Part shown: positions 8,701 through 62,774 of the stretch, one piece after another
How the letters are laid out: the number at the start of each line of letters is the position of its first letter
Numbering within the stretch: position 1 is the first letter of the stretch
NCBI RefSeq assembly: GCF_021134715.1
Contig: NC_060020.1
Location: 1,922,001 to 1,986,000, forward strand
Length of the DNA: 64,000 bases
Direction of reading: 5' to 3'
Source: Daphnia pulex
Lineage: Eukaryota; Arthropoda; Branchiopoda; Diplostraca; Daphniidae
The notes under the pieces: generated by a model
Seen by the model: the letters and a program-made list of their open reading frames with translations, nothing else
Database searches by the model: none
Told to the model about the DNA's origin: nothing
Translations under genes and position numbers: made by a program

Positions 8701-11700
8701 GCAGGAAAAAAACAACCGCATTGACGTCAGCACGGCGCCCGGCAGAGACTCTCATGCCTCGTTTGATGCTGCAGCACAGCACTATTATCGTTCACAGTGC
8801 GTGAACGAAGCAGCAACGCACACCCGCGCAGCAAATGATGAGGTTGTCTTGACAAAGTTTTTACTCTTTTCAAGTTAAGAGAACTTGTAAATACATATAC
8901 AGTTTCTGCGTATGTGCAAACACAACACGTATAAACGGTGTCAAACAGGGCCAGCACGTTTTTAGAACGTACATGACGCGAGAAGGAACCGAGGGGGGGA
9001 AAAATGGCCCGCTCTAAATTCAAATAATGAAATGCATCTTCTAAAAAGCCGATTAGGTTATATATAAAGACTCTCTAAATTGAAAGCTGCATATTACTAA
9101 TGCAACGTAATCATATGCAGTTGTGAGACGGAGAGCGCCGAGATTCGACTGAAACCTTCCTGGTATAGTTTCTCCGAAACGTTATTTGGGGATTCTAACG
9201 ATGTTGAGAGTGCAGCATTGACGGCCTCTTTGAAATACTTATTTTTACTGCATTCGCCAAGATATGGTCCTGACTATATACACACACACACATCTCTTAT
9301 TGCATTTCCCCCTTTTTCAAATGGTCTCCCTGCTGTGGCAATCAACATATCTTGTACAGTCGGCGTCTATTGCACATCCGCTTATCTCAGCGGGCGTATA
9401 ACTTTGGGTCCTTTTGTGTATCGTACAAGTATCTACTCGGAACTGCTAGAATATATCCCTATACATCTACATTATTCTCTTTACATGTACATGGTGGCAG
9501 TAATATGTAGCAATATGCTTATTCTCTATATGGTTAATAGAGGCCCACGTTGGTTGTCATGTATGTTAGTGCCACATCCTACCGAATTGTTTACAGAAAT
9601 ACTAAAAATATGAGACGACGATTGCCGAGCACTCCAGCCAGCCATATATGCTGCCACACACGGCTGGTTAAACATCTATTAGGCTGCGGCTGTTGCGGCT
9701 ATTTTTGGTACCGTAATAACACAACAAAAGTGGGCGGTCGAATAAATTTGGAGGTTTGCGCTTTTATTCTCTTGCTCTCAAGAAATACACACAAGTTCCC
9801 GGCCCCTTTTTTTCTTTCTTTTTCTTTTATATGTTCCTGACAGATATATATATAGTCCAGCAGTTAGTTGTCTATACCGCCCCCCGTGCTGCTGCCATCA
9901 TCTCAATTTCCCCGGCCACAGTGTGTCATTACTATCGTGGTCCTCCTATCAAGTTTCCCCTCCGTTCCTTTTATTCCGTAAAGATGCGCTCTTTATTGTC
10001 GGCTCGCCTTCATCAAGCCCGTAAAAGAAAAGAAAGAGAGGACAAAAAAAAAAAATATTTGACTCTGATCTTCCCAACTTTGGGGCTTTTAAAACGCCCC
10101 CAATCATACGCACGTCACAATAGAACGCCTCCGCATCCGGCGGCCCCTTCACGCAATCAACGGGGCGGCCTACGTCGATCTCGACGCGTCTTCTCAATCA
10201 AACAAATCAACTCGGATGAGAACCTCAGCAGCAGAGGCCCAATTTTAAATTCAAGATTTAAATTTTATTTAAATGTATTGCTCCTCTGTGTCAGGAAAAG
10301 AAAACCCTTGGTTTTCTGCTTAGATTTCAAATGCAGAAAGAATCCATGCATTATCCACACGAAGTAGTGTCAGTCCAAACACTTATATATATACACAGTA
10401 TATAATTAGCTATTACATGATGGTCTAATCTACTCACCAACGGGTAAAATGACGAAGAAGGGGAACCAGCAGAGTAGAAAAGCTCCGACAACAATTCCCA
10501 GCGTTTTGGCGGCTTTCTTCTGGCGCCGGAATTTGAACATCTTGGCCGACAAGCCGGTGCTACTGCCGCCCCCGGAAAACGCAGTGGCCGTCGTCGTCAC
10601 TGTCAACGTGGGTCCCGACGACGCCGTCGTCGTGACCGAGCTGGTCGTCGTGCTGGAAGGCCGCCTCGATGAATTCTTCCTCTGGAAGTGGTGCACCAGG
10701 CTTTTCTTTTTGATTACAGGGCTGGCAGTGGCCAGTTCGTTGAGGTCCTTGGCCAGCTCGCTGTTCAGCGGCGGTGGCGAAGTGTCCAGCTGCTGCTGCT
10801 GCTGCTGCAGTGACGTCTGCGGCGATGAGCGGCAATTTTTGTTATTTTTGCTACGCGAAGAAGTGGAGGATCGATCACTGATGTTTGCCGACGAGTCGAA
10901 GGCAGACGGGCGAGGGACCGAACGGCCTTTGCCCACATGGAGATGATTGTTGGGCGACGGGCGGTGGTGGTGGTGATGGTGGCCGACAGTCGTCGTCGCC
11001 ACCGTTTTCATGGGATTGGCACGTCCCACGTGAACCCGCAAAGTTAAAACTTCACTGCCACTGAGCGACGAAGTGGATTTGTCCGTCTTGGTCCCGCTCT
11101 CCAGGAACTTGGTCTGCTTGACGGCCGTCCGGTAGATGCGCCAATAGATGGCCAAAATGATGAGTGTAGGCAAATAAAAGGAGCCGATGGTGGAGAAGAG
11201 GACATAGGCTTTCTCCTTGTTGACATTGCAGGCCTGCAGTTCGGCCGAGTCCAGCAGCAGCACTCCGGCCGTCGGTAAGCTGCTGGTAGCCGCTGCTGGT
11301 GACGCGGTGGACGTCTCATTACCGGCTCCCGTCGACGAGGAATCAGCACTGCGCTCTTTCCAGCCCAAGAGCGGGCCAATGCTGATGGACAACGAGGAGA
11401 TCCAAACAATCAGGCAGAGGACGGTGGAGCGCTTGGCCGTCACGATGGAATAGTAATTCAGCGGCCGGGTCACGCCGATGTAGCGGTCGACGGAAATGAC
11501 GCAGAGCGACATGATAGACGCCGTGCAGCAGAGGACGTCCACCGCCGCCCAGACGTCGCAAAAGATGGGGCCGAAATACCAGTTGCCCGTCACCTGCAAA
11601 TCAAAGAGTCAGACGCATATCTATTATAATTGACAGGTGAGATGATGATGGATTGACGTCATGCAAATAACGACTACTCTCTCCTCTCCTCTCTAATCGT

Positions 11701-13853
11701 TCCTGAAAGACACACTAACAGCCACAGCAGGCCAACGACATTAGTAAATGAGCGAGACTCGCGTCCTACTCACTTTTTCTTTTTCTTTTTCCCTTTGATG
11801 CTCCTGGTGCGACATGGTTTAATTAATGAAGGGGAAACGGGAAAGAGGATTCGTTTCGCTCAAGTCTGCATAGTATATTACTGCCATGGCGGCGGTGTGT
11901 CTTTCAGTTCAGTGACGTCATTTCAATATAGGACTCGCGGAAAAAACGGAAGGGTGTCGTGTTGCGGTGCTGTGTGGTCGAGTTCGGTTGGACTCTTAAG
12001 ACTTTGGTTGTTTGCTCCGTTTTCTTTTTGTTTCAACATTTCGCTCTCGGGCGCTAATCTCTTTACTGAGCCGGACCTCCCCCCTCGAGAGAGAGAAAGT
12101 CAAGAGAGTCAACAACAGCCGCACCACCACCACCACAGCAACAGCAACAGCCAAAAAAGAATAGATAAATGCGTCTCGTCTCTCTCGGTTATGTCTCTCT
12201 TTTGTCTCGCCAGCTTATTTTATTTTTTTTCCAGCTCTTTTTCCGTTTCTATTTTGGCGTCCCGTCACCATCAATATATAGACTATTCGCGGCTGAAAGG
12301 GGGAAAAAAAGTGCGCTGCTGCTGTTTGCTAAGCGACGCGTTCTCACTCTCGTCCTCACTCCCAGATATGTCTACAGAATCTTCCCATATAGTATTATAT
12401 AAGAGCATCTCAGCACAGCAAAGGCGCTTGTTTGGTGTATGGACTTCCGCTCGATCCCATCAAGATTCATCTTTCTGGCGGGGCCCGTTCATTCGCCGAC
12501 GTTTTTTTTGGGAGGGGGAGGGGGAAGCGCTCTTATTTGATGGCGGCTGTGTGCATTCCTGAGAATGTGTCGAGTGCTATTTTAAAAAGAAGGAGAAGGG
12601 GAAAAAAACATCACCTCCCTGCTCCATTCAAGTTGCCCATTTAGACGACTCGACGAGCATATCCTGCTTGTTGGGTTGGCACCCACGACTTTGGGTATGA
12701 GAGGAGTATAGCAGCGCTCGTTTGTTGAATGTCTTCGGCGAACGAGGAAAGACGAGATATATATGATATTATATAAGTATACATAACTCCGAAAAGAAGA
12801 AGAAAACTGTTTGGGGCTGTGCTGCAGGAATAATATACGTATGCTGTACATGCTGAGCTGCGGAGGTGGAAGATGAAGCATATATTCACGACCCATAAAT
12901 CAGAGCAGCTTTTCCTAATGCCAGCCCATTGCTGCACATATGCATATATGCAGTGTCTGTGCCCCTAGGCATTTATGCCAGCCAGCCTTTCTTCCATTCT
13001 TCTTTGAGTATTGATTTACAAAATTCCTAAGACTTGTACTAGATTCCAATGCTATAGGCGGCTGCCTATACACTATATAATAAGACGTGATGCATCCAGC
13101 AGCAGCAGCAGCAGCCGAAATACCGACATATTGCTTTCACAGCAGCGCGTTCGGGAGCGAAAGGGATCACTTTTGAAATTGATGTCGAATTCCATCGAGA
13201 GTCGAAGCATAGAGGGAAAAAAACACACACCATCAGACTTAAAAAAAAAGGGGAGGACGAGAGAGCGAGCGAAATAAGCTCACGTCTTGGGTGTTAGACT
13301 ATGTCTATGATACCTCTAAAGTCGCCGAAAAGGGTAGAACGAGGAATCCCAGGAGCAGGTCGGCCACGGCGAGATTGGCGATCAGAATGTGGGTGGGACC
13401 TCGCAGATTGGAGTTGAAGAGAACGGCGGCCAAGATCAGCAAATTGCCGCCGATGGTGAGGAGGACGATGACGGACAGGGCCACGGCCACGACCAGCGAC
13501 ATCCAGTTCATGCTGGCGGCCAGCGACGCTGAGGCGTCTGTTGGGGATATGGCGGCACTCATCGACGTCGATTCGCCATTCATCAATAGGACGGCCAGTC
13601 CGGAGCCTAGCCGGGCCAAGCCGTCCTGCTGCTCGGCGGCAGATACTGCAGTAGTAGTAGTAGTATTGCCAACGCCACTCATGCTGCTGCTGCTGCTGTC
13701 ATCCACCGAGCCAATTATTCCGGCGTCTTCCGGGACGTTGATCGAATCCAAATACAAGACACTCTCTCCCTCGCCAGCACCACTACCTCCTCCTATTGCA
13801 TTGCTCAGATTTCTGGCCATCAAATCCACGACGGACATGACGAGCGGATGCAT
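2759..13853 (-). CDS. Octopamine/alpha-1-adrenergic-like G protein-coupled receptor
   Basis: A rhodopsin-class amine receptor of the plasma membrane. Exons on the minus strand are 13314-13853, 10438-11593 and 2759-3147, with GT/AG introns, giving 694 residues. An in-frame TAG at 13881-13883 supports the chosen ATG. TM1 is at about 118-145 and TM2 at about 154-176. TM3 has Cys192, amine-binding Asp199 (VDVLCC) and DRY 216-218. TM5 is at about 310-334, followed by a third cytoplasmic loop of about 200 residues with His6 (385-390) and Gln6 (443-448). TM6 is at about 543-563 (CWFPF) and TM7 has NPFIY 592-596. The segments [37 protein letters not shown] and [12 protein letters not shown] match the alpha-1-adrenergic/Oamb group, so octopamine (or noradrenaline-type) sensing through Gq is inferred. 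N15 (NLS) is a possible glycosylation site. I am sure of the GPCR call and less sure of the ligand. Confidence 0.88.
3148..10437 (-). other. Large intron 2 of the GPCR gene
   Basis: A 7.3 kb intron between the TM6 and TM7 exons. The donor is gtgagt and the acceptor is tgttgtgcag on the minus strand, with phase 1. It contains many TATATA strings, CTG/GCA runs and short open frames on both strands, none with recognisable protein features. I see no nested gene. Confidence 0.75.
11594..13313 (-). other. Intron 1 of the GPCR gene
   Basis: A 1.7 kb phase-0 intron between the TM2 and TM3 exons. It joins LPFSATLE to VTGNWYFG, which restores the family alignment exactly. Open frames inside it, including one of 255 codons on the plus strand at 11795-12562, are low-complexity Ser/Phe/His sequence without family resemblance. 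Confidence 0.75.
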
Positions 13854-16800
13854 TCTTCCTCTGGCTCCCCTCCACTCTCCCTATACGCGATCCGGTTGTC
13901 CCCAAAGACGACTCGTCCGATCACTTTCATGTACACACAGACACACTCTCCGCTGCTGCTGGTATATTAGTGTTGATTCAGTGCGGATGGAGTCAACAAA
14001 GTCCACTGGTGTAAGGCCGTGAAAGTGCTGCTGCGGTGCAAATGAAGCTGGACACGAAATAACTCAAAGCATTCGGAATCCATTAGTTTTGCAATCTGCA
14101 ATCGGTAGCGCGATAACAAAATGTTATGGGCACGACGAGTGGGAAATCCGACAAATGCTGCATGTTCTCGGTTATATTATTGTTGAAAGCCAAAGAACCC
14201 AAAAGGCAAAACGAAACCAAGACGGAGCAGCACCGAATCTCTAAGCGACGAGCGCAGACGATATAATAACTGACACTGCTGTTGTTGTTGTTTGTGGAAC
14301 GGTCACCAACTCTTTCGCTTCGCCGCCGCCGCCTCACTCATCGCAACACATGCGAAAATCAACAAACGGGGAAATGAAATCTTGACGCTCTTCCGCGCAG
14401 CACGAGAGATGAAATAACAATCGGAAAAAGAACGAGACGAGAAGAGAATCGTCGTTGCGGAGCTGAGCGAGACCGCGGACGACGAGGTGGCGCAACGGAC
14501 TGACAGTGGTGCAAGCAACCCAAGGACGAAGGCGAGTTGGTCCGGATGCGCGCCGCTTTCCCGTTTATCCAGGGTGGGGGGCGGCGCGCGGAAGGACCAG
14601 ACACTCTGTGCCACGCACATCAGCACACATCCCCCCTCCACCTCTCTCCTTCCAGCAATATACAACATGATGTAGAGAGACACAATGCCCAGTGTATTAA
14701 ACCCCCAGACAGACCACGGCATACTTTGCACTCATATATACAATAAAGCTCCTCTCGTGCAAAATAAAAGAGTGCAGCAGCATAGACAATATAACAGTCC
14801 GGCTGCGGATGTGCTGGAGCTGACCCAAAGCACAACTATCCGATCTATTCGAAACTGCCCTCTCTCTCTCTCTCTATAGATCTCTCTTGCTGCTGTGCTA
14901 TTATTCATATCTGAGTTATAGTCTGTATACATTGCGCGGTGCAACTGTGCAAGGTCGAGATGCCATTTCTATGAATGCTATATAGGGCAGCCCAGCGCTG
15001 TGTATGATACCTATACATATACACACAGCAGCAGCGGGAAAACGAATATAACGCGCGCTCTAATTCAAGTTTGGCGCCATCCAATCAAGAGGAAACACTC
15101 AGACTGTTGGCATTAAACTTGGCGATTTCGAATGTTTCCGTCGGCATCGCTCAACTCGTAACAATTTGCGTGCGGTTGATAATGGTGGTGGCGAAACCTC
15201 GCGGGTGCGATGCCACTTTTGAATCCAACTATTACTCCCCTATAATAAAATGTTATCCAGTTGCATGCGCCATGGTCGTTACATGCAAACTCCTTTCTCC
15301 GCCTCGGAGTCGTAATAATATCGTGTACGCGATTAAGATCATCATCCTCCCACGACTTTATAGGTTATCTTAATGTCGCAACACACTTGAGCGTGTAGAC
15401 GACCATCAGCGTTGCCATGGCAATGCCAATCGAGACGGCGCTTTTTTGATGTCCTCGCGACGAATGGAAGTAGTACAGTGTAGGCTATATCCGGCAAACA
15501 TCAATCGACGATTCGACGTTTCCAGTTGGATTGCATTATAGATAAGTTCCATGATATGCTGGGCGCAACATGATCGGCTTCCAAAAACAAGTGGAAATCC
15601 TGTGCTGCTGGCACAATTGGACAGACATAGACATCAGCATCAGTTATTGTCGAATTTCCGAGGCTTCTTCTTCTTCTTTTTTTCCCGTTTTCGGCTTTCG
15701 CTATATATTCGCTCACGTTTTATTTGTTGTGTTTGATACACGCCACATCAAATATTTAGCCACTCTATGGACAGCATATAGGCCTACCGTGTTTGAGCCG
15801 TCTTTCGTGCGATAGATTCCCATCACAAAAAAGTTCAATCCTGAATCATCTGGCCATTCCCATTGCCCGTGTTGGCATTATACTATGTGGCTGCTGACCT
15901 GCAAGAAATAGCCGAGGTCAGACCACAACAGCAAATGCTCGCCGGTCTTAGTCTGGCTTCAAAGTGTACATAGAAGCTAGTCTATATCTGAATGAAAAAC
16001 AGAAATTCCGACTTCAGCAGCGTTGTACTGATTTTTAAAAGAAATAGTAATAAAGGACGAACAACACTTTGAAAAATCAATAATTTTCGATACAATAGTC
16101 TAGAACTTTACATCTATAGTTCATGGACATAAAAGCATGTCTTAGCCTTCCTTTTCATTTAGCAACTTCCCAGCGAGGTAAAATATAGTCAAAACAACTT
16201 TTAAGCACCCTTTGTAGGATTTCTAGGAAGCCAGTTGGTAGCCAGCAGAAGTACACTATACAAGTCGGAATCACCAAATTTAAAAATAGTAGCTGCTGAA
16301 TAAAAAAAAAATGTGTACGCATTGTATTGATTGCATGTCTAAAGTCCGTGGCCATTTGCGTGGGAGCCGCTGAAATCGGCAAGTCACCAGCACCCGAACG
16401 AAATTATACAGCGATATATCCTTTATCCCGTGTATCCTCTATACCCCGCAATGACACCAGTAAATCCTACAAGATGAATATTCATCGATAAAAACTATTG
16501 ATATACTGTCCACTATATAAAATCCCGTGCATCACGGCGGTGTGTGATTAAATTCATGCGTGCGTGTTATTATGACGACCTAATCCTCATCTTAGAGCTT
16601 TATCGCCTCAGCACTGTGCTGGGAAATATTTATAGCAATTTACAAACCCCGTGCGATATATTTGACGAAGCCAGCAAGAAAAATTTAAATCTCAATTTTT
16701 CCCCCGGCGATGAGAATGTAATTTTATTTTCACGCGTGAACGAACTTTTCTTATTTTACAAACTACGGCGGGTGATTGCGTCGTGAGTCCAAAGAGTCAA

Positions 16801-55778: not shown

Positions 55779-56611
55779 CTAGTAAGCTCCAGTCGAATAT
55801 TCCTTCTTGTATGGTGCTGGTGCGGAGTAAGAAGGAGGTGTGTATTCCATCTTGTATGCGGGTGCTGGAGCGGTGTACTCGGGTTTATTGTAAACGGGAG
55901 CTGAATATGGCTTCTTGTAGGCGGGTGCTGGTGCAGAGTACTCGGGTTTGTAAGAGGGTACTGGGTAAGTTGGTTTTGGGTATGAAGGAGCAACGGCGTA
56001 AGAAGGTGCGGGCTTACTGTAAGGCGCAGCAGCTTTGTATTCGACTGGATAGGTTGGTGCGGAGTAAGTGCCAGTCTGGTATGCTGGGGCAGTCTTATAT
56101 TCGGGGTATTTGGCTTCTCCAGTGTATTTGACGTCAGCGACGTAGCCAGTGTAATCATCAGCCTTGTAGGTGACGGTCTGAGTGCGACCGTCTGGGAGAT
56201 AGACGCTGTAAGAGCCGGTAACGTAGCCCTTATCGTCACTGCTCTCTTGGTGATTATAGTTGTTGTAAGTGTAATCATCATTTACGTCATAAGCGAAATG
56301 ATATGCCTTCGGCGTCTATCAATAATGCAATAAAATTGATGGCAGATTCATTTTTTAGAACTTTTACTGGAATGATTGGAAAATAACACTCACGTCATAG
56401 CTCTTTCCGTAGTTGCTTTCTTGCTTGTACTCTGTATTATAAGTCATGGGGTATTTCTGATGATATGATCCTCCGGCAGCAGCAACGGCAAGCAAAGCGG
56501 CAAAGATGAAAATCTAGTAAATCAAACGAAAAGTAAAATGAGACTTTAAATATCAAGCAAACTAAAGTTTACTGTGAAACACAGGACAAGCAAGAAGAAA
56601 TTTACTTTCAT
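55779..56611 (-). CDS. R&R cuticle protein CP9 (inverted pair with CP10)
   Basis: Secreted cuticle protein. Exons are 56606-56611 (ATG AAA), 56394-56513 and 55779-56315, giving 220 residues. The signal peptide is MKIFIFAALLAVAAAG. A short KYPMTYNTEYKQESNYGKS spacer follows. The R&R domain starts TPKAYHFAYDVNDDYTYNNY, not APMPYNF as in the others, with GSYSVYLPDGRTQTV and YKADDYTGYVADV. A long tail rich in SAPAPAYKK and YKPEYSAP ends in STGAY. The polyadenylation signal is at 55674-55679 (minus strand). A TATATAAA box is at 56668-56675. It is head-to-head with its near-identical copy CP10. Confidence 0.94.
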
Positions 56612-57738: not shown

Positions 57739-58571
57739 ATGAAAGTAAATTTCTTCTTGCTTGTCCTGTGTTTCACAGTAAACTTTAGTTTGCTTGATAT
57801 TTTAAGTCTCATTTTACTTTTCGTTTGGTTTACTAGATTTTCATCTTTGCCGCTTTGCTTGCCGTTGCTGCTGCCGGAGGATCATATCATCAGAAATACC
57901 CTGTGGCTTATAACACAGAGTACAAGCAAGAAAGCAACTACGGAAAGAGCTATGACGTGAGTGATATTTTCCAATCATTCCAGTAAAAGTTCTAAAAAAT
58001 GAATGTGCCATCAATTTTATTGCATTATTAATAGACGCCGAAGGCATATCATTTCGCTTATGACGTAAATGATGATTACACTTACAACAACTATAATCAT
58101 CAAGAGAGCAGCGACGACAAGGGCTACGTAACCGGCTCTTACAGCGTCTATCTCCCAGACGGTCGCACTCAGACCGTCACCTACAAGGTTGATGATTACT
58201 CCGGCTACGTCGCTGACGTCAAATACACTGGAGAAGCCAAATACCCCGAATATAAGACTGCCCCAGCATACCAGACTGGCACTTACTCCGCTCCAACCTA
58301 CCCAGTCGAATACAAAGCTGCTGCGCCTTACAGTAAGCCCGCACCTTCTTACGCCGTTGCTCCTTCATACCCAAAACCAACTTATCCAGTACCCTCTTAC
58401 AAACCCGAGTACTCTGCACCAGCACCCGCCTACAAGAAGCCATACTCAGCTCCCGTTTACAATAAACCCGAGTACACCGCTCCAGCACCCGCATACAAGA
58501 TGGAATACACACCTCCTTCTTACTCCGCACCAGCACCATACAAGAAGGAATATTCGACTGGAGCTTACTAG
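57739..58571 (+). CDS. R&R cuticle protein CP10 (inverted pair with CP9)
   Basis: Secreted cuticle protein. Exons are 57739-57744 (ATG AAA), 57837-57956 and 58035-58571, giving 220 residues, the same as CP9. The visible differences from CP9 are KYPVAYNTE for KYPMTYNTE in the spacer and YKVDDYSGY for YKADDYTGY inside the R&R domain. The latter changes the Ala of the usually conserved A-D pair. The tail sequence is the same. It is expected to have the same role in cuticle as CP9; whether the domain change affects chitin binding is unknown. Confidence 0.94.
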
Positions 58572-60984: not shown

Positions 60985-62651
60985 TCAAACAGTCGATCCA
61001 AGCCGGTTTGCCATCACTCTCCATGTGTGGATGAGTAAAGAAGGGAACAAAGTCGACCAGTAGATCCAGTAGCCTTCGGGCTTACTTCCGAATTCGGCCT
61101 TGACTTCCGGGGACTGATCCGCATACTGCACCGCCTGGAAATCATAAAATGACGAAAGCGGAGACACATATTTCCGAGCTATTAAATCCTGACTGAGTAA
61201 TCCCGTCCCCGAGAGACGGGACGGAGTCTGCGTTAAATACGTACTTTGTCCCGGATGGCTAACAAAAGACCGGTCAATGACTTGGCGTCGTAACTGCGTC
61301 GCTCGATGAGTTTCTTTACGTAAGGCGTTAGGTATTGTTTCCAGTAGCCACGAATGATGGGCTGCTCTCCGTTTCTCAATTCGGCGACGATGGAACTCTC
61401 GCCTCCTTCGGCGACCTTAACCAATTCCGGTTTCAAAACTTCGTCCACCGCTTTGCAGATGAACGCCACGGCCTCTTCACTTCCCATAAAGTACGGATGA
61501 CTTAGGACGCCTTTTATGGTGATGCGAGTTGTTGGATCGCTGTCGAGCATACGCTTCATGAGATCAACAGCATTCGGATCGTTCAGCTTCTCCTCGGACA
61601 AGTGTAGAAATCCAAACAGAATACTAATTCGCCAAAACGATTCCGTGTTTTTAAGCGGGTATTTTAAAAGGCTGAAAAAATTGCGGCTATATTTAAATTG
61701 CTGCATACTTGCTCTGTTGAAGGTGAACAGGACCGAAAGGATGTAGGCCATTGGAAAGCAAATATGCGAAGACGATACCCAACGAAAAGACCTGTGCAAG
61801 AATTTCATTAGAACCCACCGAATTTGATGCCCAAATGTACAGTTCAATATTTTTGTTGTTTTGTTTTTACATCGGAAGCCGGAGATAGATCCTCTGATTT
61901 CAGTTCGTACTCGGGCGCTTTCCAACCGTCTCGAGCTCTGCGGGTTTTTATGACAATGACAGATATAGACTTCTCATCCGGTAAAGGAATGATAATAAGA
62001 AAACAGAACCCCCCAAAAAAGAAAAGAAAACAGAATATTCAAGATCCTGTATCCTACCCTTCGATTTCGAAGTTTCCCAGTTTGGCTTTGGGTGAAGGTT
62101 TCAGATCGTTGAGCGTTGGTGGCTGCTCGCAGATGACGATGCTTTGTGGATTGATGTTTCCGTGGATGATCTTCTTGTTGTGGAGGTAAGCAACGGCACT
62201 CGAGATTTGGCGGAGAATCTCCTTGTGAGTGCCGATCTCCGGCTTAGTCGTTTCCGGTTCCGTATTCTTCCGTCCCTCCACACCCTTGAGAGCTATGACT
62301 TCCAAAGTATCGGTGGTGTTTTCAGTCGCAATGTAGCTGCAAGAAAAAAGGTATTTCTATTAAGTAAAGACATACTTTGGATTTTGAGAAGGTAAATAAC
62401 CGTTACTAGAACTCATCGTCGGCTTCGGTGATGTAATAACGAGTGATGCTCGGGTGATTGATCTCCTTGAGCACTTTTTTGTCGACTACGGCGAGCGAAT
62501 TTTTGGCCCGCTTGACGGTAACTGGTGTTTTGCCGTCGTAGAGTCCTTGGAAAACGAAAACTTCGACACTTTTGGCGTTGGTTTGGGCAGACTGAGGGAA
62601 ACTCAGTTTGCCGAGCGTGGTCCATTGCTGAGGCTGATTAGGAGCGGCCAT
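60985..62651 (-). CDS. Soluble IRE1/RNase L-like pseudokinase with KEN domain
   Basis: Relative of the unfolded-protein sensor IRE1 and of RNase L. Exons are 62407-62651, 62058-62336, 61871-61937, 61709-61791, 61245-61671 and 60985-61134, giving 416 residues. The kinase-like domain (about 10-290) keeps Lys47 (VTVK), APE 182-184 and Asp197. HRD is HGN (140-142), the catalytic-loop Asn is Ser147, DFG is replaced by NFE (170-172), and there is no glycine loop, so phosphotransfer is unlikely. The KEN domain (about 294-416) has GYWKQYLTPYVKK, RRSYDAKSLTGLLLAIRDK and EGYWIYWSTLFPSLLIHTW. Tyr352 and Arg365 match human IRE1 Tyr892 and Arg905, but Asn906 is Asp366 and His910 is Gln370. There is no signal peptide, membrane helix, lumenal domain or ankyrin repeats, so a cytosolic protein is inferred. 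The 61938 acceptor is the only one I found that keeps the frame. Confidence 0.85.
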
Positions 62652-62766: not shown

Positions 62767-62774
62767 TCACGTGA
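62767..62774. promoter_or_regulatory. Palindromic E-box upstream of the IRE1-like gene
   Basis: TCACGTGA, about 116 bp upstream of the start codon. It is the core recognised by bHLH-zip factors of the MITF/TFE and USF type. An 8-base palindrome can occur by chance, so function is only suggested by position. Confidence 0.35.

What the first reader, a model, noticed from the sequence alone, without database searches (positions are those of the whole stretch)
60985..62651. IRE1/RNase L relative with both active sites degraded
Directly visible: HRD is HGN, DFG is replaced by NFE, the catalytic-loop Asn is Ser, and in the KEN domain the positions of human IRE1 Asn906 and His910 are Asp366 and Gln370, while Tyr352 and Arg365 are kept. 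In IRE1 and RNase L that His is needed for RNA cleavage. An intact, evenly spliced reading frame with a preserved fold but lost chemistry suggests a regulatory decoy or RNA/dimer scaffold. It could act on true IRE1 in the unfolded-protein response or in antiviral RNA decay. The function is inference.
Basis: partly seen in the sequence, partly recalled or inferred. Interest (0 to 1): 0.82.

Follow-up and report, generated by a model that had tools for sequence, protein, structure and literature searches.

The report
IRE1-like protein with disabled enzyme sites
This genome, said to be a water flea's, carries an unbroken gene for a relative of the stress sensor IRE1 that has lost key residues of both its enzyme sites, so it probably regulates other proteins rather than cutting RNA itself.

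Summary
On the minus strand, 60985-62651, six exons spell a 400-aa protein: an IRE1-type kinase domain followed by a KEN (RNase) domain. It aligns end to end with the genome's own canonical IRE1 (33% identity) and shares two intron positions with it. The kinase site is dismantled: 1 of 11 catalytic residues kept against 70 of 135 other conserved positions. In KEN the catalytic His is Gln, while Tyr and Arg stay. The Asn to Asp change is no sign of loss, since HEPN RNases often carry Asp there. No sensor or membrane exon was recognised. Expression and constraint could not be tested. The gene is not alone: contig C6 holds a degraded kinase joined to a KEN with RNKxxH intact, and a tandem pair with KEN remnants. 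About 100 other places resemble the IRE1 kinase. My reading is a non-catalytic partner of an active KEN protein, as IRE1-beta can be for IRE1-alpha; that part is inference.

The parts
62407..62651 (-). exon 1: start codon and kinase N-lobe (Gly-loop glycines changed, beta-3 Lys kept, alpha-C Glu is Lys)
   Evidence: first ATG of the open frame, donor GTAACG
62058..62336 (-). exon 2: hinge, catalytic loop (HGN at 62156-62164, Asn to Ser), NFE in place of DFG (62066-62074)
   Evidence: intron 1 splits the same codon in the same phase as in the canonical IRE1 gene
61871..61937 (-). exon 3: shortened activation segment, GWKAPE, start of alpha-F
   Evidence: acceptor chosen by phase and alignment, by eye
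61709..61791 (-). exon 4: alpha-F region, FSLGIVFAYLLSNGLHPFG
61245..61623 (-). exon 5: end of kinase C-lobe and first half of KEN (Tyr336, Arg349, Asp350; the codons of Arg-Asp at 61248-61253)
   Evidence: an alternative start at 61671 would add 16 aa
60985..61134 (-). exon 6: second half of KEN, Gln354 (61126-61128) where IRE1 has the catalytic His, stop codon
   Evidence: intron 5 lies after R-D-K as the KEN intron of canonical IRE1 lies after R-N-K

Best explanation
A gene with an unbroken frame, descended from a spliced kinase-KEN gene of the IRE1 family, codes for a protein with no recognised sensor or membrane part. Its kinase can hardly transfer phosphate and its KEN domain very probably cannot cut RNA. 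It most likely works by binding: its kinase/KEN surfaces pair with a catalytically able KEN protein of the same cell (the canonical IRE1 on C1, or the RNase L-like protein on C6) and lower or tune that partner's RNase activity. Shown: frame, domains, residue changes, two shared intron positions. Inferred: expression, folding, dimer formation, direction of the effect.
For: Domains and full-length alignment. Kinase catalytic residues changed preferentially: 1 of 11 kept against 70 of 135 others, Fisher p = 0.009, on hand-set alignment blocks. KEN keeps 25 of 54 other positions shared by human and canonical IRE1, plus the active-site Tyr and Arg. Open frame after deep divergence: 0 of 20,000 shuffles stop-free; 0 of 1,500 neutral simulations at 0.2 substitutions per site keep the frame open. 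No luminal, membrane or ankyrin exon recognised upstream. Precedent: IRE1-beta oligomerises with IRE1-alpha and acts as a dominant negative (review PMC11007444, section 5 read); IRE1 signals through dimers/oligomers (PMC10907699, passages).
Against: No expression or interaction data. Of four positions that I recall as dimer contacts in human IRE1, two are changed (D620 to N, W833 to M) and two kept (R627, D847). KEN catalytic positions are not lost more often than other KEN positions (2 of 4 kept against 25 of 54). Constraint could not be measured. In the exon-by-exon genome search the best match outside the gene is a kinase frame beside a caspase frame on C12 (60.9 bits), level with canonical IRE1 (59.9 bits).
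Confidence: 0.4

Rival explanations
1. A pseudokinase scaffold unrelated to IRE1 control: one of many IRE1-like kinase genes in this genome, used in a cytosolic, perhaps immune, pathway; the KEN is kept only as a structural or RNA-binding module.
For: The IRE1 kinase query gives 128 exon rows besides IRE1's own 5, some in loci with ankyrin-repeat frames and two with caspase-like frames (caspase confirmed by Pfam for one). The HEPN survey holds that some domains without the motif act as RNA binders (PMC3710099 passages). The window protein matches unit B on C6 at 61.6 bits and groups with unit C at 90/65.
Against: That tree fork is below the significance mark and unit C is a long branch. No KEN was found at E up to 5 in 34 fetched loci outside the KEN genes, so a KEN is not typical of the expansion as far as fetched.
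Confidence: 0.3
2. A gene in decay that still happens to have an open frame.
For: Both active sites are changed, 1 of 11 kinase catalytic residues remains, KEN catalytic positions changed no more than the rest, and no second DNA copy was found.
Against: The frame is open at 33% identity to IRE1. Exons have 46-54% G+C against 30-46% in introns, and the five introns are GT-AG. Fold anchors are kept.
Confidence: 0.15
3. The KEN domain still cuts RNA with other residues (Arg349, Asp350, Tyr336 plus a different proton donor).
For: Tyr and Arg are kept and Asp after Arg is common in HEPN RNases. Some HEPN families lacking the His have a second His that could substitute (PMC3710099 passages).
Against: The same passages state that the His is essential in the KEN of RNase L. 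I did not look for a substitute His in a structure.
Confidence: 0.1

Closest known systems
IRE1 (human ERN1, yeast Ire1, and the canonical gene of this genome on C1)
   Same: Kinase-KEN order, full-length alignment, two intron positions shared with the C1 gene, fold anchors
   Different: No recognised luminal or transmembrane part, kinase site dismantled, KEN His is Gln, activation segment 16 residues shorter
RNase L
   Same: Cytosolic pseudokinase joined to KEN (recalled; not aligned here)
   Different: RNase L has N-terminal ankyrin repeats and an active KEN (recalled); here neither was found
Arabidopsis IRE1C
   Same: IRE1 paralogue without sensor domain (PMC6788458, outline and abstract seen)
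   Different: Nothing seen there about inactive sites; not compared by sequence
Mammalian IRE1-beta (ERN2)
   Same: Paralogue with impaired phosphorylation that can act as dominant negative (PMC11007444 section 5)
   Different: The same section says both paralogues conserved their structural domains and that IRE1-beta has RNase (RIDD) activity
C6 array of the same genome (C6:1436500-1445900, minus)
   Same: Degraded IRE1-like kinase joined to KEN (unit A) or KEN remnant (units B, C); KEN intron after R-N-K in unit A
   Different: Unit A keeps RNKxxH; units B and C form one spliced frame and lie before an ankyrin-repeat frame

Membership tests
IRE1 family | Kinase domain followed directly by KEN, homologous over full length | tested here: met
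IRE1 family | ER-luminal sensor and transmembrane segment | tested here: not met
   The first ATG of the frame is at 62651; no such exon recognised by eye among minus-strand ORFs (at least 60 aa to window end; at least 70 aa in C4:1985501-1995000). Shorter exons spliced into the 22 in-frame codons before the ATG are not excluded
IRE1 family | Active kinase residues (Gly loop, Lys, Glu, HRD, Lys, Asn, DFG) | tested here: not met
   1 of 11 kept
IRE1 family / KEN RNases | R-N-x3-H plus Tyr in KEN | tested here: not met
   Tyr and Arg kept, Asn is Asp, His is Gln
KEN (HEPN) domain | Sequence profile match over the curated cut-off | tested here: met
   66.0 bits, cut-off 23.3
RNase L | N-terminal ankyrin repeats that bind 2-5A | tested here: not met
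   No ankyrin family in the 400 aa; none recognised by eye upstream; 2-5A binding not testable
IRE1-beta-like dominant negative | Oligomerises with and inhibits an active IRE1 | not testable with these tools
   Needs protein experiments
Functional gene | Purifying selection and expression | tested here: inconclusive
   Unbroken frame only; no orthologues or reads available

The most novel reading that the evidence does not exclude
The lineage has split the IRE1 toolkit into separable cytosolic modules: a kinase-degraded protein with an intact KEN motif (C6 unit A), a doubly disabled partner (this gene) that controls it as an allosteric or RNA-binding subunit, and many KEN-less IRE1-like kinases joined to ankyrin or caspase domains. 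This would be an RNase L-like, possibly antiviral, network arisen independently of vertebrate OAS-RNase L.
Probability: 0.12. Interest if true: 0.85.

Novelty: new variant of a known kind. Interest (0 to 1): 0.47.

Why it matters
A doubly disabled but unbroken IRE1 relative without a recognised sensor would be a natural test of whether the kinase/KEN fold is used for control apart from catalysis. The C6 unit A, with a degraded kinase and an intact KEN motif, suggests that RNase L-like layouts may arise outside vertebrates. The 2013 HEPN survey lists the motif as conserved in 95% of KEN domains (PMC3710099 table), so KENs without it were already known but uncommon.

Tried and rejected
Viral-contig search: 3 stretches matched a pattern, none a relative. 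DNA copy elsewhere in the genome: only the gene itself. Alternative splicing to restore R-N-x3-H: 199 GT-AG introns enumerated (donors from 250 nt into exon 5 on, lengths 35-400), 2 pattern hits, both out-of-frame readings of exon 5 that lose the KEN helix. Pfam KEN search of the genome: 3 rows at the default threshold, 5 rows at E up to 10, on C1, C4 and C6. Window KEN as query: itself and canonical IRE1 only. Unit A KEN as query: itself only. Canonical IRE1 as query: 133 rows, of which 5 are IRE1 itself, about 101 are kinase C-lobe rows at E up to 1e-9 and 27 are weaker rows, mostly N-lobe; the window gene's exons are not among the rows, and only 103 of 284 candidates were scored. KEN in the expansion: no hit at E up to 5 in six-frame ORFs of 34 fetched loci, some of which overlap; an earlier scan with a smaller profile gave only weak rows outside the KEN genes, the best (E 0.058) in the C6 array, which led to it. 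The other places were not fetched, and whether each is IRE1-type rather than another kinase was not tested. Phylogeny: 18 rows cut by hand to the kinase C-lobe, 4 of 15 inner branches starred, the window gene in no starred set; units A, B, C and L016 are long branches. MAFFT misplaced the beta-3 Lys and the DFG position of the window gene; the counts (56 of 93 kinase and 18 of 32 KEN positions kept) carry that error, so one search uses hand-set blocks based. Structure prediction was not run: the stated rule admits proteins that the DNA gives letter for letter, which a spliced protein is not. Literature: ten searches listed no paper that by title or opening abstract describes a doubly inactive IRE1 in Daphnia or another crustacean; only open-licence PMC papers were searched, lists were capped, and four papers were opened (PMC3710099 passages; PMC10907699 passages; PMC6788458 outline and abstract; PMC11007444 passages and section 5).

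Full report
What is there. On the minus strand of the window, 62651 down to 60985, six exons separated by introns of 70, 120, 79, 85 and 110 nt (GT-AG) give a 400-aa protein. Exon G+C is 46-54%, intron G+C 30-46%. The other two frames of the spliced sequence hold 16 and 8 stops; 0 of 20,000 mononucleotide shuffles are stop-free. Pfam finds Pkinase (80.8 bits) and Ribonuc_2-5A, the KEN domain (66.0 bits), both above their cut-offs. Among solved structures the 16 IRE1 chains (yeast and human) come first, E from 8e-44 to 2e-40; the next, a calcium-dependent kinase, has 3e-12. The window is C4:1922001-1986000 of a 133-Mb, 13-contig assembly.

Relation to IRE1. The same genome has a canonical IRE1 gene on C1 with a membrane-spanning stretch (by eye), HRD, DFG, a full activation loop and RNKKNH. 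The two proteins align over 401 columns at 33% identity. Two introns coincide in position and phase: one splits the codon five residues before the hinge Glu (phase 2), the other lies after R-N-K / R-D-K in KEN (phase 0) (positions read; the canonical stretch has four further introns and the window gene three, at other places). So the window gene comes from a spliced kinase-KEN gene, not from a retrocopy. No second DNA copy was found. In the exon-by-exon search its best match outside itself is a kinase frame beside a caspase frame on C12 (60.9 bits), level with canonical IRE1 (59.9 bits); the KEN domain and introns tie it to IRE1.

The lost chemistry. With alignment blocks set by hand around the BLAST alignment, the window protein keeps 1 of 11 kinase catalytic residues (the beta-3 Lys), against 70 of 135 other kinase positions shared by human and canonical IRE1 (Fisher p = 0.009; the list of 11 is from general knowledge of kinases). 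Changed are the three Gly-loop glycines, alpha-C Glu, HRD Arg and Asp, the Lys two further on, the catalytic-loop Asn, and DFG Asp and Gly. Between the DFG position and GW there are 6 residues instead of 22, which removes the stretch holding human S724, S726 and S729 (recalled names). Fold anchors remain: HRD His, APE, alpha-F Asp, alpha-I Arg. In KEN, Tyr892 and Arg905 are kept, Asn906 is Asp, His910 is Gln. The HEPN survey states that the residue after the Arg is mostly N, D or H, that the His is essential in the KEN of RNase L, and lists the motif as conserved in 95% of KEN domains (PMC3710099 passages). RNase loss therefore rests on one change, His to Gln. KEN catalytic positions are not lost more often than others: 2 of 4 kept against 25 of 54. 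That result does not by itself show selective disabling.

Splicing. The 85-nt version restores the IRE1 motif without an insert and drops 48 nt of 37.5% G+C. Both stay in frame. Of 199 GT-AG introns tried between exons 5 and 6, none restores R-N-x3-H in register; 2 pattern hits are out-of-frame readings.

Architecture. The first ATG of the open frame is at 62651, 22 in-frame codons after a stop. Among the minus-strand ORFs listed from there to the window end and in C4:1985501-1995000 (ORFs of 70 aa or more) I recognised no luminal, membrane-sensor or ankyrin exon; the first stretch that I recognised is tetraspanin-like, about 5.5 kb upstream, by eye. Shorter upstream exons are not excluded. 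The product should be a soluble kinase-KEN protein.

Relatives in the genome. The Pfam KEN model finds, exon by exon, IRE1 on C1, this gene on C4 and, below cut-off (18.4 bits), one exon on C6. Reading C6:1436500-1445900 shows an array. Unit A, once spliced, passes the KEN cut-off (32.2 bits against 23.3) while its kinase does not (13.1 against 31.7), and its motif reads RNKSSH, though the position of human Tyr892 is not Tyr (by eye). Units B and C form one open spliced frame of two kinase-like parts, each followed by a KEN remnant without the motif; the remnants score only 5.1 and 12.7 bits with a KEN profile made here and do not appear in Pfam's list. An ankyrin-repeat frame follows; whether it belongs to the same gene was not tested. 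Beyond these, the IRE1 kinase query gives 133 exon rows, 5 of them IRE1 itself, which I read as about 100 other kinase places (103 of 284 candidates scored). Some lie in loci with ankyrin-repeat frames (by eye) or, at two loci, caspase-like frames; the caspase was confirmed by Pfam for one, 94.4 bits. No KEN was found at E up to 5 in 34 fetched loci outside the KEN genes. Whether each of these is IRE1-type rather than another kinase was not tested. A tree of 18 kinase segments puts the window gene with unit C at 90/65, not significant; by BLASTP it matches unit B at 61.6 bits.

How it probably works. A protein with kinase-KEN fold anchors but without the residues for either reaction, and without a recognised sensor, is most simply read as acting by binding. 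The nearest precedent is IRE1-beta, which oligomerises with IRE1-alpha and acts as a dominant negative (PMC11007444 section 5). Arabidopsis IRE1C shows that a sensor-less IRE1 can matter (PMC6788458 abstract). I commit to a non-catalytic partner of an active KEN protein, probability 0.4. Against it, two of four dimer-contact positions that I recall from human IRE1 are changed (D620N, W833M), and nothing shows expression. A scaffold or RNA binder in another pathway (0.3), decay (0.15) and residual RNase activity through other residues (0.1) remain.

Verdict. The decoy interpretation is possible but untested. It is a new variant of a known kind, of moderate interest, which rises because the same genome holds a kinase-degraded protein with an intact KEN motif.

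Noticed in passing
G000:C6:1442904-1444500 minus (L048, L030): Unit A: kinase so degraded that it falls below the Pfam cut-off, joined to a KEN domain above cut-off with RNKSSH intact; an RNase L-like layout without ankyrin repeats recognised in its own frame.
   Followed up: partly
G000:C6:1439359-1441510 minus (L030, L049): Units B and C: one spliced frame with two tandem degraded kinase plus KEN-remnant parts, followed by an ankyrin-repeat frame (about C6:1437312-1439030). Inverted copies of a short sequence lie just before unit B, whose N-lobe I did not find (by eye).
   Followed up: partly
L010 / L037 (C5:2783622) and L036 (C12:5063342): IRE1-like kinase frame directly followed by a caspase-like frame (QACQG by eye; Pfam caspase 94.4 bits for the C5 copy), possibly a kinase-caspase fusion.
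   Followed up: partly
C3, C10, C11, C12: Large set of IRE1-like kinase exons, some followed by ankyrin-repeat frames; the count is a lower bound and the kinase type was not tested for each.
   Followed up: partly
window 55779-56315 (-) and 58035-58571 (+): Two nearly identical 178-aa tyrosine/proline-rich, cuticle-protein-like frames in opposite orientation, looking like a recent inverted duplication or conversion (by eye).
   Followed up: no
window 10430-11608 and 13305-13880 (-): Frames resembling a biogenic-amine-type G-protein-coupled receptor with a long low-complexity loop (by eye).
   Followed up: no
window 62768-62773: CACGTG palindrome (within GTCACGTGA) about 117 bases upstream of the start codon; possible E-box.
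   Followed up: no
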